A stretch of 64,000 nt of DNA from Huiozyma naganishii CBS 8797 (lineage: Eukaryota; Ascomycota; Saccharomycetes; Saccharomycetales; Saccharomycetaceae). This document shows positions 43,963 through 51,574 of the stretch, one piece after another (positions within the stretch are counted from its first letter, which is position 1; each line of letters begins with the position of its first letter). Below the pieces are notes generated by a model. It did not search any database, was not told where the DNA came from, and saw only the letters and a list, made by a program, of their open reading frames with translations. Position numbers and translations under genes: made by a program. Location of the stretch: NCBI RefSeq assembly GCF_000348985.1, contig NC_035922.1, forward strand, positions 819,604-883,603, written 5' to 3'.

Positions 43963-44177
43963 TATGAGATATCTACCGTACTGTCTCTGTATCAAGATGA
44001 AACAGTGGTAGCGCTGGTACTGCCAAATTCGATGTTTTCAACCGCACTAAAACCTCAACTCGTTCTTTGTGACAAAATCACCGGAAGGATTTATCTGCCC
44101 CGATGAGCAACAGAAAGGCAACCGTGGTCTCCTGCACCTCCACAACCCTATAAAGACCTACAGTGGCGCACTTTTGG

Positions 44178-45482
44178 ATGGTAATGAACCGACATGGGTC
44201 AACAAGTAGTCGTACAGTGGGTGCTACGACGTCTGCTGGTCTTGACCAGAACTTTGGGAACATCGATGAATTAGGGTGGTTTAAATGGGTATGGTACATT
44301 ACAACCAAACTGACCATATCAGATATCGTCTTGATGATACAGGAGCGTGTTGAGCTAGTTGACTGGGATGAAAAGGCAGATTCTATCGCAAAACCTCTCG
44401 GGATCTGTTTGATTACGTTGACATACTCTATTAGGTTTCTTCAGGATAACCTTATACGACCCAACTCTATAGCACTATACGGGTCTGGTACAAACCATGC
44501 CGGTGACGCAGAGGTATTTGACTTGTCTAAGTCCAAGAAGTTACGCGAGATGGATTACCTGCCACAATTTCCAACTTCCATCCCTAACCTAGGGAGCCAC
44601 CAGCAAATTGAACAGAAATGGTATTTCCGCCTGTTACGGTCTCTGGATAAAGTTACCACCGGTATATCAGTGGTTTGCATATGTTTGAATCTGTTTGTCA
44701 GCTACAAGTTTTTGTTTGGTCACTTCAGATTGTACTCCCTTTTTTATTCTGTTGACCGTCCAAGTGGATCTCCAAACATCGTTATACTCTCTCTGGATGA
44801 ACTAAATGACGATGGTGCATGGGGGATAACATTGGAAAATACACATTGGTCTTTTTGGACAATATGCCGTTATCTCTTGTTCCGTTGGAGGTCTCGTATC
44901 AGACGTAAGCAGGCTCGTTTAGATGATGGCGGTGATGGGACTACCAAAGACTACTATTACCAACTAAGGAAATGGACCCCATCAAGATTTATGACTACCC
45001 TTTTTATTTATTATCCCCCGACTTGTTTGGTGTTTCTCTGCTTGATGGAGGCAAGTTTCTCGATGTTAGGTGCCATTGTCGTCCATCAGTTCTTGTTTAA
45101 AATGATCATTGGAAGATATTTGGTTAGAATTACAGATGATTCCATTTTGTCAAAGTCTTTAATGGATGAGTATATTCAGAAGGCAATCAACCCTCTGACA
45201 AACAAACAAATGCAAGATGCACAAACTGGCGCTACATTTTATGATGAGTTTGGAGACGTGAAATTTTTCCCTGCTACAACTTCAAGTAAAAGGAATATAT
45301 TCCAGAGCCACGACATTGGCGGGGAACTAATCAAGCAAAGTTATGACAAAAGTGAGGGTAGTTTCAAAGATTTCGCAAAAGGCGAAAGAGAAGCTCAGAA
45401 TAGAATATTTGTTCCTCCCAAACAATTTCACCGCTTTCGTGTACGAAATCAAAATTCGCAATCACAAAATTGGAGAAGATAG
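44178..45482 (+). CDS. NUR1: Nur1, nuclear-rim membrane protein
   Basis: A 434-residue protein with several hydrophobic spans (about residues 77-95, 175-200, 270-315) and conserved segments RLLQDNLI-like (RFLQDNLIRPNS), FDLSKSKKLRE and YYQLRKWTPSRFM. In S. cerevisiae Nur1 pairs with Heh1 (CLIP) to anchor rDNA to the inner nuclear membrane and is released by Cdc14. The frame begins with GTG at 44163; ATGs follow at 44178 and 44184, and I use the first. It is about 50 residues shorter than S. cerevisiae Nur1 (484), mostly in the C-terminal tail. Matches YDL089W; the next expected gene, ASM4, is not here. Confidence 0.88.
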   Translation: MVMNRHGSTSSRTVGATTSAGLDQNFGNIDELGWFKWVWYITTKLTISDIVLMIQERVELVDWDEKADSIAKPLGICLITLTYSIRFLQDNLIRPNSIALYGSGTNHAGDAEVFDLSKSKKLREMDYLPQFPTSIPNLGSHQQIEQKWYFRLLRSLDKVTTGISVVCICLNLFVSYKFLFGHFRLYSLFYSVDRPSGSPNIVILSLDELNDDGAWGITLENTHWSFWTICRYLLFRWRSRIRRKQARLDDGGDGTTKDYYYQLRKWTPSRFMTTLFIYYPPTCLVFLCLMEASFSMLGAIVVHQFLFKMIIGRYLVRITDDSILSKSLMDEYIQKAINPLTNKQMQDAQTGATFYDEFGDVKFFPATTSSKRNIFQSHDIGGELIKQSYDKSEGSFKDFAKGEREAQNRIFVPPKQFHRFRVRNQNSQSQNWRR

Positions 45483-45613
45483 TTGAATTTTGCAGTCACC
45501 CAATGGTCAAGCGTTACAAAATGAACTTTCCTCCTTGGCCTAAGCAGTTCAAATACGTAGTATTGTTTTCAAGATACTCTGGATATATAACATATATATT
45601 CTGGCATTTATAT

Positions 45614-46375
45614 TCAAGTTTTTATAATCTTCTTCCTATAAATATTGTAATCTTCCCTCATTTTAACGTACCCTAGATGAACTTTGCCCAAAAAATGATC
45701 TGCTAATCTTCTATCAGTGTCCAGTCTCGAAAGGTATGCTCCGCACACTTCACACACTTGTAATTTTTGCTGCGCGCTTTGGCCCACATTTTCCGTGATG
45801 TTCTTGATCTTTTTCGCTACTACTTTCCTGTTGTCTTGCATTTCTTGCAGTTTGACAGACTGTTGCATTGCCTTAACTACTTCATTGTGTTCTATGAGAG
45901 AATCTATTTCCTGCATCATAAGTCCTATGCGCGTGTCCAACTCATCTAATTCATTAGTCACTTGTTGAATCTTTGCACGCTCCTCGGGTGTGTGTTCAAG
46001 CCTTTTCAATGCAATCCGCGTCTGCCCATTGCAATCGTTGATAAATTTGGAGAGTATAGTAAAGTACTCCCTTTCAAAGTTTAAGAAATCGTGGCCCTGT
46101 TTCTTCATTTTCTCATATTGCATCTTGTATTTCAGTAAATGTATCTGAGGACACTTCCCCATACTCTGTTTGGAGTTTTGGAAGAGGTCATACGGACACG
46201 ACCCGACAAGGTATGCCTTACAGACCCGCGCGTCACTTAGTCCAAAGTCCTTCTTGGGACCTGATATATGTACATGCGCTGCCCTTGAGTGTCTATGATT
46301 ACCGCTAAACCTCAAAAAATCCTTCCCTACTAGCTGATCTATCAGCTTCCTTTGCTCCGCATCATATATACCCAT
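45614..46375 (-). CDS. LUC7: Luc7, U1 snRNP protein
   Basis: A 253-residue protein (S. cerevisiae 261). Two zinc fingers are present: a CCCH-type near the N-terminus (CKAYLVGSCPYDLF followed by KCPQIH) and a C2H2-type near the C-terminus (CEVCGAYLSRLD followed by HFLGKVH). Between them is a coiled coil. Luc7 stabilises the U1 snRNA-5' splice site duplex and influences the choice of weak sites. The frame opens at TTG 46396; ATG 46375 (MGIYDAEQRKL) fits the family start. Matches YDL087C. Confidence 0.96.
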   Translation of the reverse strand: MGIYDAEQRKLIDQLVGKDFLRFSGNHRHSRAAHVHISGPKKDFGLSDARVCKAYLVGSCPYDLFQNSKQSMGKCPQIHLLKYKMQYEKMKKQGHDFLNFEREYFTILSKFINDCNGQTRIALKRLEHTPEERAKIQQVTNELDELDTRIGLMMQEIDSLIEHNEVVKAMQQSVKLQEMQDNRKVVAKKIKNITENVGQSAQQKLQVCEVCGAYLSRLDTDRRLADHFLGKVHLGYVKMREDYNIYRKKIIKT

Positions 46376-46581
46376 TGGGAATGTCCGTGTACGCAATCGA
46401 TTATCACCTCTCTCACTTTACAATGTGAATCCGTTTCAACCATATCAGTTCTCATATTCAAAAATTGCGATGCCATTTTTCTTTTTAAAATTAAGGTGGT
46501 GGACAAAAAAGAGTGAAGGTAAAGATGACACAAAATAGCGAGTTTCGCAAGCAATAAGACAGATATAATATTAGGTGTTTC

Positions 46582-47379
46582 ATGTTGAGCAAATTGATTA
46601 TCAAGGGGGTGGAATTTACCTACAGCAAGCTTAATACAGGGGTAAAGCTTTCCGTGGATGAAGAACAACACATTCTTTTTTTAAGTAGTGGCACCACTAA
46701 AGAGTTTGACCTTTTAAATACTGTTTTTATAAGCGAACTCCTTTTACGGTTTCCAGGTTGCAGTATTATCAATTTAGGATCTTTATCAACTTTGGAAGTG
46801 TTTGACGAAAGGTATCATTATATATACTGTGACTTTAAAAGCGAACGTTCGGTAGATCATGCTTTGAAGAAACTGTTCTTGCATCCCCTCTCCACACATT
46901 TCAATATGGTAATAAATAATGTCCACGAGGGAATCCAAACCGTTTATGATCGCACCATTGACTTTCAAGATGTGGCTCAAATAAGAGACTGTTTACGAGC
47001 CAATTTGACACATATTATGATAATTTTAAAAAATGTCTTACAAAGGGGGGTCAGAAATGAAGATCCTTTATATGTCGTTAGCATGAGCTCTACAATTACT
47101 TTAGATGTGAAGGAGTATGCAATTGGCTATACTTCCGCCAAAGCTGGACTGGCACACTTTATGGATTCTTTAAGTTCTGAAGTGGAAAAAGAATGTAAGT
47201 CTTTCTTAGTGTTTCTGCCCTACCAGCTAAGTACTGATGACGTTCCAGTCCTAGTTGATGACCTTCTTAAGGATTTTCACCATGGAAGACAGGGAGCAAA
47301 AGTATGTCACTTGCCAACAGAAGTCAACAGAATACATATTAGAAAAGATGCACTTAAGTTGTTGAAAGAATGGATGTAG
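46582..47379 (+). CDS. Degenerate short-chain dehydrogenase-like protein
   Basis: A 265-residue protein with an SDR fold in its middle and end. It keeps the NN doublet of NNAG (Asn112-Asn113) and the positions of the catalytic tetrad: Asn141, Ser169/Ser170, Tyr183 and Lys187 (YTSAK). The glycine-rich cofactor motif is lost: the expected TGxxxGxG is SSGTTKEFD (residues 35-43), and the usual acidic residue after strand 2 is not evident. It may therefore bind cofactor poorly or have a structural or regulatory role; this is inference. I do not recognise a syntenic counterpart in S. cerevisiae (ASM4 or NUP53/YIM1 would be expected nearby). It ends 56 bases before the convergent T5orf172-type gene. 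Confidence 0.7.
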   Translation: MLSKLIIKGVEFTYSKLNTGVKLSVDEEQHILFLSSGTTKEFDLLNTVFISELLLRFPGCSIINLGSLSTLEVFDERYHYIYCDFKSERSVDHALKKLFLHPLSTHFNMVINNVHEGIQTVYDRTIDFQDVAQIRDCLRANLTHIMIILKNVLQRGVRNEDPLYVVSMSSTITLDVKEYAIGYTSAKAGLAHFMDSLSSEVEKECKSFLVFLPYQLSTDDVPVLVDDLLKDFHHGRQGAKVCHLPTEVNRIHIRKDALKLLKEWM

Positions 47380-47435
47380 GTTGTTTGATATATGCTTTGA
47401 AGATATCTTTAATTATGTAGGATTTGTATCCATCA

Positions 47436-48264
47436 CTATCCCCCATTTTTCTTGAGACAGAAGTTATCTATATTTTGGAAAATATATGGAAGATCATTTA
47501 TTGGAAGGTAAAACCATTCAAGATGTTTTTTTGTTCCACTGGGATTGCAACCAGAACAGTGTACAATTCCCTTACCGTATTTCTTCCAAAGAGAGGTATG
47601 TATACTGTGTTCAATATGTTGTAATGCAACTGAACCGCTCCCATCGATATAGAACCCCCCGTTTTGGTACGTGCGCAAAACCAAGCCTTTAGGTTCTCTC
47701 GCCTTCTCACTGGCAATGGAATTCTCCTTCTTGCCTTCTCCACTAAGAGAAAATCGTTTCATCCACCTAGTTAACATAGTGACATCCGATTCGTTAGTTG
47801 ACGTGTATGTTTCGGTCAGTTTAGCAATCGCCTGTGGTGTCAAATTAAGAAGTTCGTGATTACACAAGTTTCTCCACTCGTCCAACCTCAATTGCACATT
47901 GCGTTTTGTAGTCATTCCAATCTTGCAGAGCAAGTATCCGTTGTTGTCCCATTTCTCTTTCCCAACAACGGAAACAGCTTTGCCTGTCTTCTTCACCACC
48001 GAATTGTCAAGTTGCAACCAGTTAACTTTCTCCAGGTCATGGTGAACCAGCGCCTCATAGAGTAGTTTGTATGTGTAAATATAAATGAAGCCTGGCCCCT
48101 TTGATGCTGAGTATTGGAATGTCGATGCGTCCGGCGCAGTTGAAGACTGATTTTTATGGTACCAACAATGCGATTGTTCCGGTGGTAATAGAATTTTGCA
48201 GGGCAAACCTTTACTAGTGATGCCTAAGACACTTGTGTTTGCTTTGCTGTGTGCTGGTAGACAT
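47436..48264 (-). CDS. T5orf172/DUF1766-type GIY-YIG protein, probable +1 frameshift gene
   Basis: The main frame (47436-48224) has no ATG before its domain; the stop upstream in that frame overlaps the only good ATG. That ATG (48264) opens a 13-codon frame, MSTSTQQSKHKCL, ending at CTT-AGG-C (48222-48228) just before tandem TAG TAA stops. A +1 shift there gives a 275-residue product continuing GITSKGLPCK. The junction restores a Cys/His motif (C12, C22, C33, H36). Downstream are GIY-YIG-like elements: GFIYIYT (58-64), KIGMTT (from about 114), R126 and EHSIHTSLWKKYG, then CSGC and HLEWFYLP. This resembles the T5orf172 (DUF1766) family, known from S. pombe mug113 and filamentous fungi. Function unknown; nuclease ancestry is inferred. 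A base-call error cannot be excluded. Confidence 0.75.
48222..48228 (-). promoter_or_regulatory. CTT-AGG-C +1 ribosomal frameshift heptamer
   Basis: On the minus strand the zero frame reads TGT CTT AGG CAT CAC TAG TAA. CUU-AGG-C is the exact Ty1/Ty2/Ty4 and ABP140 +1 frameshift signal: peptidyl-tRNA-Leu slips from CUU to UUA while the AGG codon waits for a scarce tRNA-Arg. Skipping the A joins the frames as Cys-Leu-Gly-Ile-Thr. Confidence 0.7.
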
Positions 48265-48691
48265 TACGATGACAATTAAGGTGTTTGATCGGTTGTGCTT
48301 ACGGTTGTGAGCTGATCAAAGTACAGTAGCGGAATGTCCATTTTTTTCTTTTCTCTTTTCACTATATATGGACGCTTTGAGCTTGCACCTGGATCTGCAC
48401 AAAATCGAATGTCTGCCTTCTGGTTGAGCACATTCTTTAAAATGGTTTACGAACAGTTGAGTCCTGTCTTTGTATTTTTCGCCAACTGTTTGCTCTTCGA
48501 GTTGCAAAAAATCCGTTTCCCTGATGCCCGACAAAAGGGGGAGAGACAACCTTGCACCGTTTAACCCGAAAAGATTATATAAATACGACGAGATGTTCAA
48601 CAATATAAGTCTTACTTTGAAATGTAGTGTCAATTGTGGTTTGTAGACTTGTAGAGAAGCAGACTCCGAATCCTACCACAAGAAACACATA
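48265..48691. other. Divergent spacer between the T5orf172-type gene and YDL086W-like gene
   Basis: 427 bases without a supported gene. A TATA element (TATATAAA, 48576-48583) lies about 110 bases upstream of the YDL086W-like ATG. A short open frame at 48334-48564 has no recognisable features. Confidence 0.5.
48576..48583 (+). promoter_or_regulatory. TATA element upstream of the YDL086W-like gene
   Basis: TATATAAA matches TATAWAWR at about 110 bases before the ATG at 48692. Function inferred. Confidence 0.5.
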
Positions 48692-49516
48692 ATGTTGATT
48701 GAAGAGACCTTTGAAGACGTTCCAACTTCGTGTGGGCAGACCCCTATGCGTTGTTACATCTTCACGCCAAAAGTTGCCAATTACCCACAGGCTAAGTTCC
48801 CAGGTGTCATCGTCTACAGTGAAATCTACCAGGTGACTGGTCCCGTGCGTCGTTTTGCGCAAAGAATTGCGTCTCAAGGGTACGTTGTAATTGCGCCAGC
48901 TATCTACCACAACTTTGTTGGTCCCGAGGCCATGCCCTACGATGTGAAGGGCACTGATGACGGGAACCAGTACAAGATTGAAAAGTCATTGTCCTCGTAT
49001 GACGAGGACAACAAGCTGTGCTGCGACCTGTTGTACAGGCTGCCCCAGTTTGACGGGGCCAGGATCGGTGTCACTGGGATGTGTCTAGGTGGACATCTGG
49101 CGTTCAGGGCCCTTTTGGACAAGAGAATTAGCTGCGCTACATGTTTTTTCCCCACTGATATCCACTCCAAGACACTAGGTCTCGGGAAAAACGATGACTC
49201 CTTAGAGCGTGTTTCCAAGGAACTAACCAGAGACCAAGAAATGATACTGATTTTTGGTACTTTGGACACCCACGTTCCACCAGAGGGTAGAGATTTGATC
49301 AGAAAGACTTTAAGGGACAACAACTGTCGTGTCACCTTCCTCGAGGTCCTGGAGGCCCAGCACGCCTTCATCAGAGACGAATCGAGTAAGGGAAGATACG
49401 ACGCTGCCATCACCGAGGGCTGCCTAGGTCTAATGCTGGAACAGTTCAACAGATCGCTGAAGACCACTCTGGGGCCATTTGTGGACAACACCAAGCCTTC
49501 AGTACATGTCTGTTAG
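48692..49516 (+). CDS. Dienelactone hydrolase-family protein (YDL086W-like)
   Basis: A 274-residue alpha/beta-hydrolase, the same length as S. cerevisiae YDL086W (273). The dienelactone-hydrolase catalytic triad is visible: Cys in GMCLGGH, Asp in [10 protein letters not shown] and His in [10 protein letters not shown]. The family includes bacterial carboxymethylenebutenolidases; the physiological substrate in yeasts is unknown. Codon choice looks like that of a well-expressed gene. It lies upstream of NDE, as YDL086W lies before YDL085W. Confidence 0.92.
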
Positions 49517-49879
49517 ACAGTAAACGGTCCGACACCCAACTGTATCGTACGTACTTATATGTCATACGTACTGTTTCTCTACTGAGTTGGAATACTGATA
49601 CATGTTCCTTTTTTTATGACATTTAGATAGCGCCGCACTTTTTATGTGTCATCGCCGCGGGTGGAGGGGTGCGACAACTATAAAAGAAGGACAGTTTCGA
49701 GCAGCCCTTCGAGAAGTATTTGCTTCCGGTTTACCGTCTTTTCGTGTGGGGCAAAGTGTAGAAGCTTTGTATATTTAGTTATAAAGACGTTAAACGGGCA
49801 CGACTTTTAAGGGTTTACGAGCCTTTTTCAGTGACGGTTCTCCATTTTGCTGTATCCCATTCTCCCTTTAGTAACTCTG
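49517..49879. other. NDE promoter region
   Basis: 363 bases without a supported gene. A TATA element (TATAAAAG, 49679-49686) lies 200 bases upstream of the ATG. It is preceded by a GC-rich patch with GGAGGGGTG, which resembles a Mig1 or stress element. An in-frame TTG at 49847 extends the NDE frame, but I do not use it. Confidence 0.5.
49679..49686 (+). promoter_or_regulatory. TATA element upstream of NDE
   Basis: TATAAAAG, a strong TATAWAWR match, about 200 bases upstream of the ATG at 49880. Confidence 0.5.
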
Positions 49880-51574
49880 ATGTGGAAAACTCCAAGTTGC
49901 AAGTTGTCCACTCACCTTGGTGTTAGGGTTTGTGAACGGCAGTTTAGTGTATTCAGTTTTGTGAAACAGAGGTCTAACTTACCAGAAATTAAGCCAGAGA
50001 CTAAAGTTACAAAGATGCCCTCCCGTTTTGGTAAATACACTCGTACCGGGTTCCGGTATGCCCTGTACGCTACATTAGGTGCTACGGTATTTTTTTCGTA
50101 CAGTCTTTACAGGGAACTGCACCCCAGTAAGCGAATTCCGCAAACCCCAACATTCCCGAATGGACAACCGAAGAAAACTTTGGTTGTTTTGGGCACGGGT
50201 TGGGGGGCTGTCTCTCTGTTGCAAAGTTTGGATACCACCATGTACAATGTTGTCGTGATATCCCCCAGAAATTATTTCCTGTTCACTCCATTGCTGACCT
50301 CCACACCCATGGGCACAGTCAACTTGAAATCCATTGTGGAGCCGATAAGGGCAATCCTTGGACGGAGTAAAGGTGACGTGAAATTTTACGAAGCTCAAGC
50401 TATCGACGTGGACCCAGCGCAAAAGAAAATACTGGTGAGATCTGCCGTTGGAGATAAAAATAATAATGGGAATGAATCCATCAGTGGTGATCTCAAGTTG
50501 CCCGACCATGGTGTCAAAAATATTTCATATGATTATTTGGTCGTGAGTGTTGGAGCCGAGTCTACTACATTCAACATCCCGGGTGTTCAAGAGAATGCAT
50601 ATTTCATGAAAGAGGTTACAGATGCAGAGAGAGTCAGAGCACGAATTTTGGATAATATTGAAAAGGCCTCCTTCCTGCCCGTGGGTGATACTAGAAGAAA
50701 ACAGTTACTTAATTTTCTGGTAGTTGGTGGAGGCCCAACAGGTGTGGAGTTTGCTGCTGAGTTGCAGGATTTCGTCAAGCAAGATTTAAAGAAGTGGCTA
50801 CCTGAGCTGTCCAAAGAAGTCAAAATCTCCTTGGTAGAGGCTTTGCCCTCCATTTTGAATATGTTTGATCAGTCCTTGATTGACTATACCCAAACGCTTC
50901 TCAAACATGAGAATATTGACCTAAAGCTAAACACAATGGTGAAAAAGGTGACCAAAAACTCCATCGTCGCAAGCAACGAGGGTAAAGAGGTTGAAATTCC
51001 GTATGGGTTACTGGTGTGGTCAACTGGTAATAAGCCAAGAGTCCTGACGCAGAAAATCATGTCAAAATTAGAAGAGCAGACAGATAGACGTGGACTTTTG
51101 ATCAATGATAATCTGCAGTTGCTGGGTGCAGAGGACTCCATATATGCGCTCGGTGATTGTACTTTTCATCCAGGATTCGTGCCAACAGCGCAGGTAGCAT
51201 ATCAGGAAGGTCGATATTTGGCCAAAACTTTAGAAGCCTTGTTTAAAGTTGAACAAATCAAATGGGAACTCGACAACAACCAGGAGCTGCCCACAAAAAA
51301 GATCGTTCGTCTACAAAAAGAGTTGAGTAAGCATGAATCAAGCATCGTTGCCTTCCAGTACTCTCATATGGGGACTTTAGCGTACATCGGGTCAGAAAAG
51401 GCAATTGCCGACCTAAACATTGCTGGATCACAATACAAATTATCCGGAGGGCCTCTTTTATATTGGTTTTGGAAGTCAGTTTATCTGACAATGTGTATTT
51501 CTTTGAGAAATAGGGTCATGGTCACGGCAGACTGGATAAATGCTTACATCTTCGGAAGAGATTCATCAGTCTGA
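49880..51574 (+). CDS. NDE1: External mitochondrial NADH dehydrogenase (Nde1/Nde2)
   Basis: A 564-residue type II NADH:ubiquinone oxidoreductase. It oxidises cytosolic NADH on the outer face of the inner membrane and does not pump protons. Two Rossmann motifs are visible: VVLGTGWGAVSLL (FAD, about residue 100) and VVGGGPTGVEFAAEL (NADH, about 280). The conserved IGDCTF-like segment (LGDCTFHPG) and the C-terminal membrane-binding FLGRDSS-like end (IFGRDSSV) are present. The N-terminus is basic and hydroxylated (MWKTPSCKLSTHLGVRV), followed by a hydrophobic segment near residue 60. S. cerevisiae has NDE1 (YMR145C) and NDE2 (YDL085W) as duplicates; I cannot tell which copy this is, so the symbol is provisional. 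Confidence 0.92.
   Translation: MWKTPSCKLSTHLGVRVCERQFSVFSFVKQRSNLPEIKPETKVTKMPSRFGKYTRTGFRYALYATLGATVFFSYSLYRELHPSKRIPQTPTFPNGQPKKTLVVLGTGWGAVSLLQSLDTTMYNVVVISPRNYFLFTPLLTSTPMGTVNLKSIVEPIRAILGRSKGDVKFYEAQAIDVDPAQKKILVRSAVGDKNNNGNESISGDLKLPDHGVKNISYDYLVVSVGAESTTFNIPGVQENAYFMKEVTDAERVRARILDNIEKASFLPVGDTRRKQLLNFLVVGGGPTGVEFAAELQDFVKQDLKKWLPELSKEVKISLVEALPSILNMFDQSLIDYTQTLLKHENIDLKLNTMVKKVTKNSIVASNEGKEVEIPYGLLVWSTGNKPRVLTQKIMSKLEEQTDRRGLLINDNLQLLGAEDSIYALGDCTFHPGFVPTAQVAYQEGRYLAKTLEALFKVEQIKWELDNNQELPTKKIVRLQKELSKHESSIVAFQYSHMGTLAYIGSEKAIADLNIAGSQYKLSGGPLLYWFWKSVYLTMCISLRNRVMVTADWINAYIFGRDSSV

What the first reader, a model, noticed from the sequence alone, without database searches (positions are those of the whole stretch)
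48214..48264. Probable programmed +1 ribosomal frameshift in a T5orf172-type gene
On the minus strand a 13-codon ATG frame ends at CTT-AGG-C and then meets tandem stops (TAG TAA). The long downstream frame has no ATG before its domain and is closed by a TAA overlapping that ATG. A +1 slip on exactly this heptamer joins them, and it rebuilds a Cys/His motif (C12-x9-C22-x10-C33-x2-H36) whose first Cys is in the zero frame and the rest in the +1 frame. CUU-AGG-C is the established signal of Ty1 and of the cellular gene ABP140. The two frames overlap over about 16 codon positions; assuming equal base use, a chance in-frame copy of this heptamer there is about 1 in 1000. I know of no report of frameshifting in this family.
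Basis: partly seen in the sequence, partly recalled or inferred. Interest (0 to 1): 0.95.

Follow-up and report, generated by a model that had tools for sequence, protein, structure and literature searches.

The report
Yeast YFS1 frameshift gene, already published
This yeast gene is split over two reading frames at the same seven-base signal as the published baker's-yeast gene YFS1, so ribosomes are predicted to skip one base there and make one protein whose likely zinc finger straddles the join; the frameshift is already in print, the finger seems not to be.

Summary
On the minus strand ATG 48264 opens a 16-codon frame holding TGT-CTT-AGG-C (48231-48222), then TAG TAA; the long +1 frame has no ATG before Met117. 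The joined 275-aa protein has 37 homologs. Nine read C-x-G-x-T in one frame; six read V-L-G, as TGT-CTTAGGC does in the +1 frame. No intron signals were found. The genome, likely Kazachstania naganishii, also has CTT-AGG-C in a probable ABP140 and CTT-AGT-T in EST3.

It is not new: Ivanov et al. 2025 (PMC12719033) report this frameshift for the family (YFS1/YPL034W), needed by 52 of 81 homologs and tested in S. cerevisiae.

My addition: the shift site cuts a C-x9-C-x10-C-x2-H motif, likely a CCCH zinc finger and perhaps Mcm10-like, on weak but agreeing evidence. One ligand is in frame 0, three in frame +1.

Against: a tRNA-Leu(AAG) gene is present, several of the best-scoring homologs are single-frame, and another Pfam family (DUF5763) fits the motif better than the Mcm10 one.

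The parts
48214..48264 (-). ORF1 (zero frame): ATG, 16 sense codons MSTSTQQSKHKCLRHH, stop TAG; a second stop TAA follows at 48213-48211
48222..48228 (-). +1 shift heptamer CTT-AGG-C; the skipped base is the A at 48225, +1 frame resumes at GGC 48224-48222
   Evidence: identical to the YFS1 site in PMC12719033
48229..48231 (-). UGY Cys codon directly 5' of the heptamer (Cys12); first ligand of the Cys/His motif, in the zero frame
   Evidence: the paper reports this Cys in 81 of 81 homologs
47436..48224 (-). ORF2 after the shift (+1 frame): residues 14-275 and stop TAG; the +1 frame is open from 48263
48156..48231 (-). probable CCCH zinc finger, perhaps Mcm10-type, Cys12-Cys22-Cys33-His36, split by the shift site
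47511..48092 (-). T5orf172/MUG113-like domain (GxIYIYTY ... CKIGMTTK ... R ... E-H-W), residues 58-251
   Evidence: family alignments; Pfam (window protein itself 18.2 bits, cut-off 22.3)
47913..47915 (-). first in-frame ATG of the +1 frame (Met117); start of the 159-aa protein P0002 held for this genome, which lacks the finger and the GxIYIYTY stretch
48276..48341 (-). possible upstream ORF of 21 codons in an A-rich ATG context (AAAAAAATGGAC); whether it lies in the transcript is unknown

Best explanation
The minus-strand gene at 48264-47436 is the likely ortholog of Saccharomyces cerevisiae YFS1 (YPL034W), and its 275-residue protein is predicted to be made by a programmed +1 ribosomal frameshift on CUU-AGG-C. 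Inferred from the Ty1, ABP140 and YFS1 work: initiation at AUG 48264; a pause at the AGG codon, for which one tRNA-Arg(CCU) gene was found; slippage of peptidyl-tRNA-Leu from CUU to UUA; entry of tRNA-Gly on GGC; and continuation in the +1 frame to TAG 47436. Ribosomes that do not slip would stop at TAG TAA and release a 16-residue peptide. The protein is predicted to be a Mug113/T5orf172 (GIY-YIG type) DNA-acting protein with an N-terminal CCCH zinc finger that may resemble the Mcm10 finger. The shift site lies between the first and second presumed zinc ligands, so only frameshifted translation would make a complete finger. Shown here: the two frames, the heptamer, the homologs, the shared break at protein level, and two other shift sites in the same genome. 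Not shown here: slippage itself, zinc binding and nuclease activity.
For: 1. Frames, heptamer and stops read directly. 2. The joined protein aligns to homologs over up to 98% of its length. 3. Of 37 homologs (P0003-P0039), 9 carry C-x-G-x-T in one frame, 6 read V-L-G-[IV]-T at that place (one named, Lachancea nothofagi), 1 (P0037) reads C-L-R-H as the zero frame here does, and 21 begin inside or past the motif. V-L-G is what GTC-TTA-GGC gives, that is TGT-CTT-AGG-C read in the +1 frame; all 15 in the first two classes share G-x-T. 4. No GTATGT, GTAAGT, GTACGT, GTATGA, GTATGC, GCATGT or TACTAAC on the minus strand of 46801-49000. 5. Same genome: EST3 (by Pfam TPP1) broken at CTT-AGT-T (C12:176624), and a Lifeact-like ORF (MGVRDLIKKFES; probable ABP140) ending in in-frame CTT-AGG-C (C1:360817). 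6. One tRNA-Arg(CCU) and three tRNA-Leu(UAG) genes found. 7. PMC12719033: 52 of 81 homologs need the shift; UGY before and UNAC after the heptamer, both present here (TGT; A-TCAC); 48% frameshifting in a reporter and a single 40-kDa product in S. cerevisiae.
Against: A tRNA-Leu(AAG) gene (C9, UAG-type body) is present, while the paper's discussion says that tRNA is almost always absent where CUU slippage is used. Six of the homologs with the highest scores (P0003-P0006, P0008, P0010) are single-frame. V-L-G is inferred from protein letters, not from DNA; no expression data, reads or DNA of relatives could be obtained (searches found none). S. cerevisiae Yfs1 was not among the named hits, so orthology rests on features the paper describes. 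The window protein scores 18.2 bits for MUG113, under the cut-off of 22.3, with no T5orf172 hit. Its neighbours are a short-chain dehydrogenase and a dienelactone hydrolase gene; synteny with YPL034W was not tested. Fold searches gave no significant match for the nuclease core. The tRNA-Arg pattern read backwards also rang once, though ARAGORN confirms the forward hit.
Confidence: 0.93

Rival explanations
1. A one-base insertion error in the assembly, or a recent frameshift mutation (pseudogene), broke a gene that is otherwise read in one frame.
For: A single extra A would do it; only one assembly of this genome was seen; 9 of 37 homologs are single-frame.
Against: Six homologs from other contigs break at the same codon with the same V-L-G signature; the rest of the +1 frame is intact over 262 codons; the paper reports near-perfect conservation of the same site in the 52 homologs that need a shift.
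Confidence: 0.03
2. An intron joins the frames; the CTTAG of the heptamer would be its 3' splice site.
For: CTTAG fits a YAG acceptor.
Against: None of six donor spellings and no TACTAAC branch point on the minus strand of 46801-49000; the Cys codon just before CTT is the conserved residue, so nothing needs to be removed.
Confidence: 0.01
3. No frameshift: the product is the 159-aa protein from Met117, and ORF1 is an unrelated upstream ORF.
For: This is the protein held for the genome (P0002).
Against: It lacks the Cys/His motif and the GxIYIYTY stretch, which homologs keep. In S. cerevisiae no product of the corresponding Met101 start was seen by blot.
Confidence: 0.03

Closest known systems
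YFS1 / YPL034W of Saccharomyces cerevisiae (Ivanov et al. 2025, PMC12719033)
   Same: Short ATG frame, CUU-AGG-C directly after a conserved UGY Cys, UNAC after it, +1 frame without ATG up to a Met inside the domain, Mug113/GIY-YIG-type protein.
   Different: Here the Cys is codon 12, not codon 3. The paper reports the first 47 residues as unstructured by AlphaFold 3; the AF2 model here gives residues 11-40 block means of pLDDT 79-89. The main text does not name K. naganishii.
ABP140 and Ty1 +1 frameshift site
   Same: Identical heptamer CUU-AGG-C; a probable ABP140 of this genome carries it too.
   Different: The site lies near the start of a small gene; in the probable ABP140 it is about 345 codons in. 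No upstream stimulator was looked for here.
LLP1 / YJR112W-A (PMC12661321, section read)
   Different: Not compared by sequence here; no relation is claimed.
Mcm10 internal-domain CCCH zinc finger (PDB 3ebe, 3h15, 7y01)
   Same: C, C, C, H order and a similar spacing; the only PDB sequences found with the N-terminal profile (3 of 3 at E up to 10); model residues 10-43 superpose.
DUF5763 (PF19067) and zf-TRM13_CCCH (PF11722)
   Same: Both match the same N-terminal motif in some homologs: 7 and 5 of 28 at E up to 0.1; DUF5763 passes its cut-off in P0008, 28 against 26.3 bits.
   Different: DUF5763 is a family of unknown function; neither matches the window protein itself.

Membership tests
YFS1 frameshift genes | CUU-AGG-C in the frame of a short upstream AUG | tested here: met
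   48228-48222, codon 13 of the ORF from ATG 48264
YFS1 frameshift genes | UGY Cys codon before and UNAC after the heptamer | tested here: met
   TGT-CTTAGGC-A-TCAC; features as described in PMC12719033
YFS1 frameshift genes | No AUG in the +1 frame between its upstream stop and a Met inside the domain | tested here: met
   First Met of the +1 frame is residue 117, MTTK; Met101 in S. cerevisiae
YFS1 frameshift genes | Sequence homology to S. cerevisiae Yfs1 | not tested
YFS1 frameshift genes | Frameshifting in vivo | not testable with these tools
   No reads, profiling or mass spectrometry available
CUU slippage background (Farabaugh, as cited in PMC12719033) | Scarce tRNA-Arg(CCU) | tested here: met
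   One gene found by a pattern search (its backward control also rang once), confirmed by ARAGORN; other spellings of the gene would be missed. AGG is 156 of 627 Arg codons in 24 window ORFs of 300 codons or more, some of which may be antisense
CUU slippage background (Farabaugh, as cited in PMC12719033) | tRNA-Leu(UAG) present and tRNA-Leu(IAG) absent | tested here: not met
   12 tRNA-Leu genes found by an A-box pattern: 5 CAA, 3 TAA, 3 TAG, 1 AAG. The AAG copy is UAG-like in body. The paper says 'almost always absent'.
T5orf172 / MUG113 (Pfam) | Score over the curated cut-off | tested here: not met
   Window protein MUG113 18.2 bits against 22.3, no T5orf172 hit. Of 28 aligned members 28 match MUG113 and 27 T5orf172 at E up to 0.1, and all nine homologs scanned pass the T5orf172 cut-off.
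GIY-YIG nuclease fold | Structural match to solved GIY-YIG domains | tested here: inconclusive
   No significant fold match for models of P0040 or P0039
Mcm10-type CCCH zinc finger | C-C-C-H ligands in order, conserved in the family | tested here: met
   C12, C22, C33, H36 invariant in the 10 N-terminal segments given, the window's and nine single-frame homologs'
Mcm10-type CCCH zinc finger | Sequence and fold similarity to Mcm10 | tested here: inconclusive
   concordant but each weak; the window protein itself has no zf-primase hit; of the four homologs with a zf-primase hit three (P0003, P0006, P0008) score better for DUF5763, and P0039 has zf-primase alone
Mcm10-type CCCH zinc finger | Zinc and DNA binding | not testable with these tools
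   Needs protein

The most novel reading that the evidence does not exclude
The YFS1 shift site is placed inside an Mcm10-type CCCH zinc finger: the first zinc ligand is translated before the slip and the other three after it. The frameshift would then gate assembly of a DNA-binding finger fused to a GIY-YIG-type nuclease, which would fit the POL12 genetic interaction that Ivanov et al. describe.
Probability: 0.45. Interest if true: 0.5.

Novelty: already known. Interest (0 to 1): 0.35.

Why it matters
Cellular +1 frameshift genes are few, and this window adds sequence-level evidence in another yeast for one reported only in 2025. It indicates that the 159-aa protein held for this genome is an N-terminally truncated model. 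If the split finger is right, it gives YFS1 a testable DNA-linked function and would explain why the Cys before the shift site is conserved in all 81 published homologs.

Tried and rejected
Intron: rejected for lack of donor and branch sequences. Assembly error or pseudogene: rejected on the same break in six other proteins. Met117 start as the sole product: rejected on conservation and on the published blot.

DNA of relatives: scans of viral contigs and genome contigs with A1 gave 27 and 22 pattern matches and no relative. Pfam searches of the own genome for MUG113 and ODC_AZ found nothing; the first is a sensitivity failure, since the gene is there, and the second rang in no control genome, so OAZ1 was not examined. 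The tRNA family search scored 63 of 483 candidates, so tRNA counts come from pattern searches and are lower bounds. The Lifeact-based pattern gave 11 places against 4 for the backward control; I examined the 8 that came as loci, and one starts with Met-Gly and holds the in-frame heptamer. Fold searches: no GIY-YIG title among the 27 rows listed for the window protein's model, among the 50 of 108 rows and 16 entries listed for homolog P0039's model, or in the one row; Mcm10 did not appear for P0039 either, whose first 30 residues are modelled with block means of 64-82. Whole-length sequence searches of the PDB found nothing at E up to 1. A third protein search, with the 159-aa protein, found only itself. 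A literature search for GIY-YIG with Mcm10 found no paper.

Errors of mine: I read the plus strand of loci whose match is on the minus strand. The EST3 readings, and five of eight ABP140 candidates, were wrong and were redone. The window readings are not affected.

Full report
What is in the sequence. On the minus strand the ATG at 48264 opens a frame of 16 sense codons, MSTSTQQSKHKCLRHH, ended by TAG TAA. Codons 12-14 plus one base are TGT CTT AGG C (48231-48222). The +1 frame is open from 48263 to a TAG ending at 47436, and its first ATG is residue 117 of the joined protein. Joining at the heptamer gives 275 aa. The same heptamer occurs three times in the window, against 4.34 expected; in short translations around them, the other two do not look like junctions of this kind. 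An in-frame copy in the 14 usable slots has a chance of 5.0e-4, or 2.5e-3 for four yeast +1 heptamers together.

Which genome. The window's assembly has 10,845,821 bases in 13 contigs. A review table gives 10.8 Mb and 13 chromosomes for Kazachstania (now Huiozyma) naganishii CBS 8797 (PMC5499181, passage seen; taxonomy). The identification is an inference from size and number.

Relatives. The joined protein found 15 homologs besides the genome's own 159-aa entry, and a profile search raised this to 37, P0003-P0039. At the break, 9 of 37 read C-x-G-x-T in one frame, 6 of 37 read V-L-G-[IV]-T, 1 of 37 (P0037) reads C-L-R-H, and 21 of 37 begin inside or past the motif. For the column count the alignment held 27 of the 37; the 10 left out all begin past the motif. 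Read in the +1 frame, TGT-CTT-AGG-C gives V-L-G, so the six carry the mark of the same frame break at the same codon. A Wickerhamomyces homolog, P0038, is single-frame, and so are six of the best-scoring homologs (P0003-P0006, P0008, P0010). The DNA behind these proteins could not be fetched.

Splicing. None of six donor spellings and no TACTAAC lies on the minus strand of 46801-49000.

The decoding background. EST3 of this genome (Pfam TPP1) is split at CTT-AGT-T (C12:176624, minus strand). An ORF beginning MGVRDLIKKFES, probably ABP140 by its likeness to the Lifeact peptide (recalled), ends its zero frame with CTT-AGG-C at C1:360817, after which the +1 frame stays open. One tRNA-Arg(CCU) gene was found. 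Twelve tRNA-Leu genes were found by an A-box pattern: 5 CAA, 3 UAA, 3 UAG and 1 AAG. The AAG gene has a body like the UAG genes. This last point goes against the rule that frameshifting species lack tRNA-Leu(IAG) (discussion of PMC12719033); whether the gene is expressed is unknown.

What is published. Of PMC12719033 I saw the outline with abstract, the first two results sections, the reporter and blot sections and the discussion, and searched its main text for words; I did not open its profiling section, which the discussion sums up. It names YFS1, encompassing YPL034W, a mug113-like protein with similarity to GIY-YIG nucleases. Of 81 Saccharomycetales homologs 52 need the shift, with near-perfect conservation of CUU-AGG-C; five Kazachstania species lost it and three have CUU-CGG-C. 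A Cys codon UGY precedes the heptamer and UNAC follows it; both are present here. A reporter gave 48% frameshifting and 1.5% after mutation of the site. PMC12661321 (outline with abstract, introduction and the LLP1 section; word search) compares the S. cerevisiae sites. The Ashbya paper PMC3737163, the Zygosaccharomyces paper PMC5433688 and the pseudogene paper PMC2876123 speak of other cellular cases (passages); YFS1 or YPL034W is not named in those passages. Searches for T5orf172 with frameshift, YPL034W, YFS1 and mug113 (listings only) showed no report on this frameshift besides the two 2025 papers. So the finding is right, and already known for the family.

Against the Mcm10 reading. DUF5763 fits the motif better than zf-primase in P0003, P0006 and P0008, and passes its cut-off in P0008; zf-TRM13_CCCH matches 5 of 28 members at E up to 0.1, best 0.00036. 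So a CCCH finger is likelier than an Mcm10-type one in particular. The model of homolog P0039 did not return Mcm10 in its listed rows, and the paper's AlphaFold 3 model leaves this region unstructured in S. cerevisiae. In Mcm10 this finger binds DNA beside an OB fold, and the same domain contacts Pol-alpha (PMC5333062, passages). The words zinc, finger and Mcm10 do not occur in the main texts of the two YFS1 papers, and no paper of the library held both GIY-YIG and Mcm10.

Verdict. By sequence evidence a programmed-frameshift gene, by its features an ortholog of YFS1, already known in kind. The split finger is the part worth a test.

Noticed in passing
G000:C12:176624 (minus strand), loci L046/L047: EST3 of this genome (Pfam TPP1) is split at CTT-AGT-T, the S. 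cerevisiae EST3 signal, with zero frame ...CQLLS* and +1 frame VEFHPEC....
   Followed up: yes
G000:C1:361852-360811 (minus strand), locus L048: A probable ABP140 (MGVRDLIKKFES...) whose zero frame ends ...DSHLRHP* with in-frame CTT-AGG-C; the +1 frame continues. The +1 translation shows X residues further on, so the stored DNA has unread bases there.
   Followed up: partly
G000:C9:572350-572457, locus L040 1490-1597: A tRNA-Leu(AAG) gene with a body nearly identical to the three tRNA-Leu(UAG) genes, as if the anticodon base T34 had become A; unexpected in a yeast with CUU-A shift sites.
   Followed up: partly
window 48276-48341, minus strand: A 21-codon upstream ORF whose ATG context (AAAAAAATGG) is more A-rich than that of ATG 48264 (ATCGTAATGT); it could limit YFS1 translation if transcribed.
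   Followed up: no
protein P0037: A homolog from a 935-base contig reads C-L-R-H-N-K-K-G-x-x-C in one frame; either an indel in that assembly or a natural single-frame variant that lost G-I-T.
   Followed up: no
window 44154-51574: Neighbours are homologs of a DUF2418 protein, LUC7, a short-chain dehydrogenase, dienelactone hydrolase and an NDH2-type NADH dehydrogenase, resembling S. cerevisiae chromosome IV around YDL085-089 (recalled), not the YPL034W region.
   Followed up: partly
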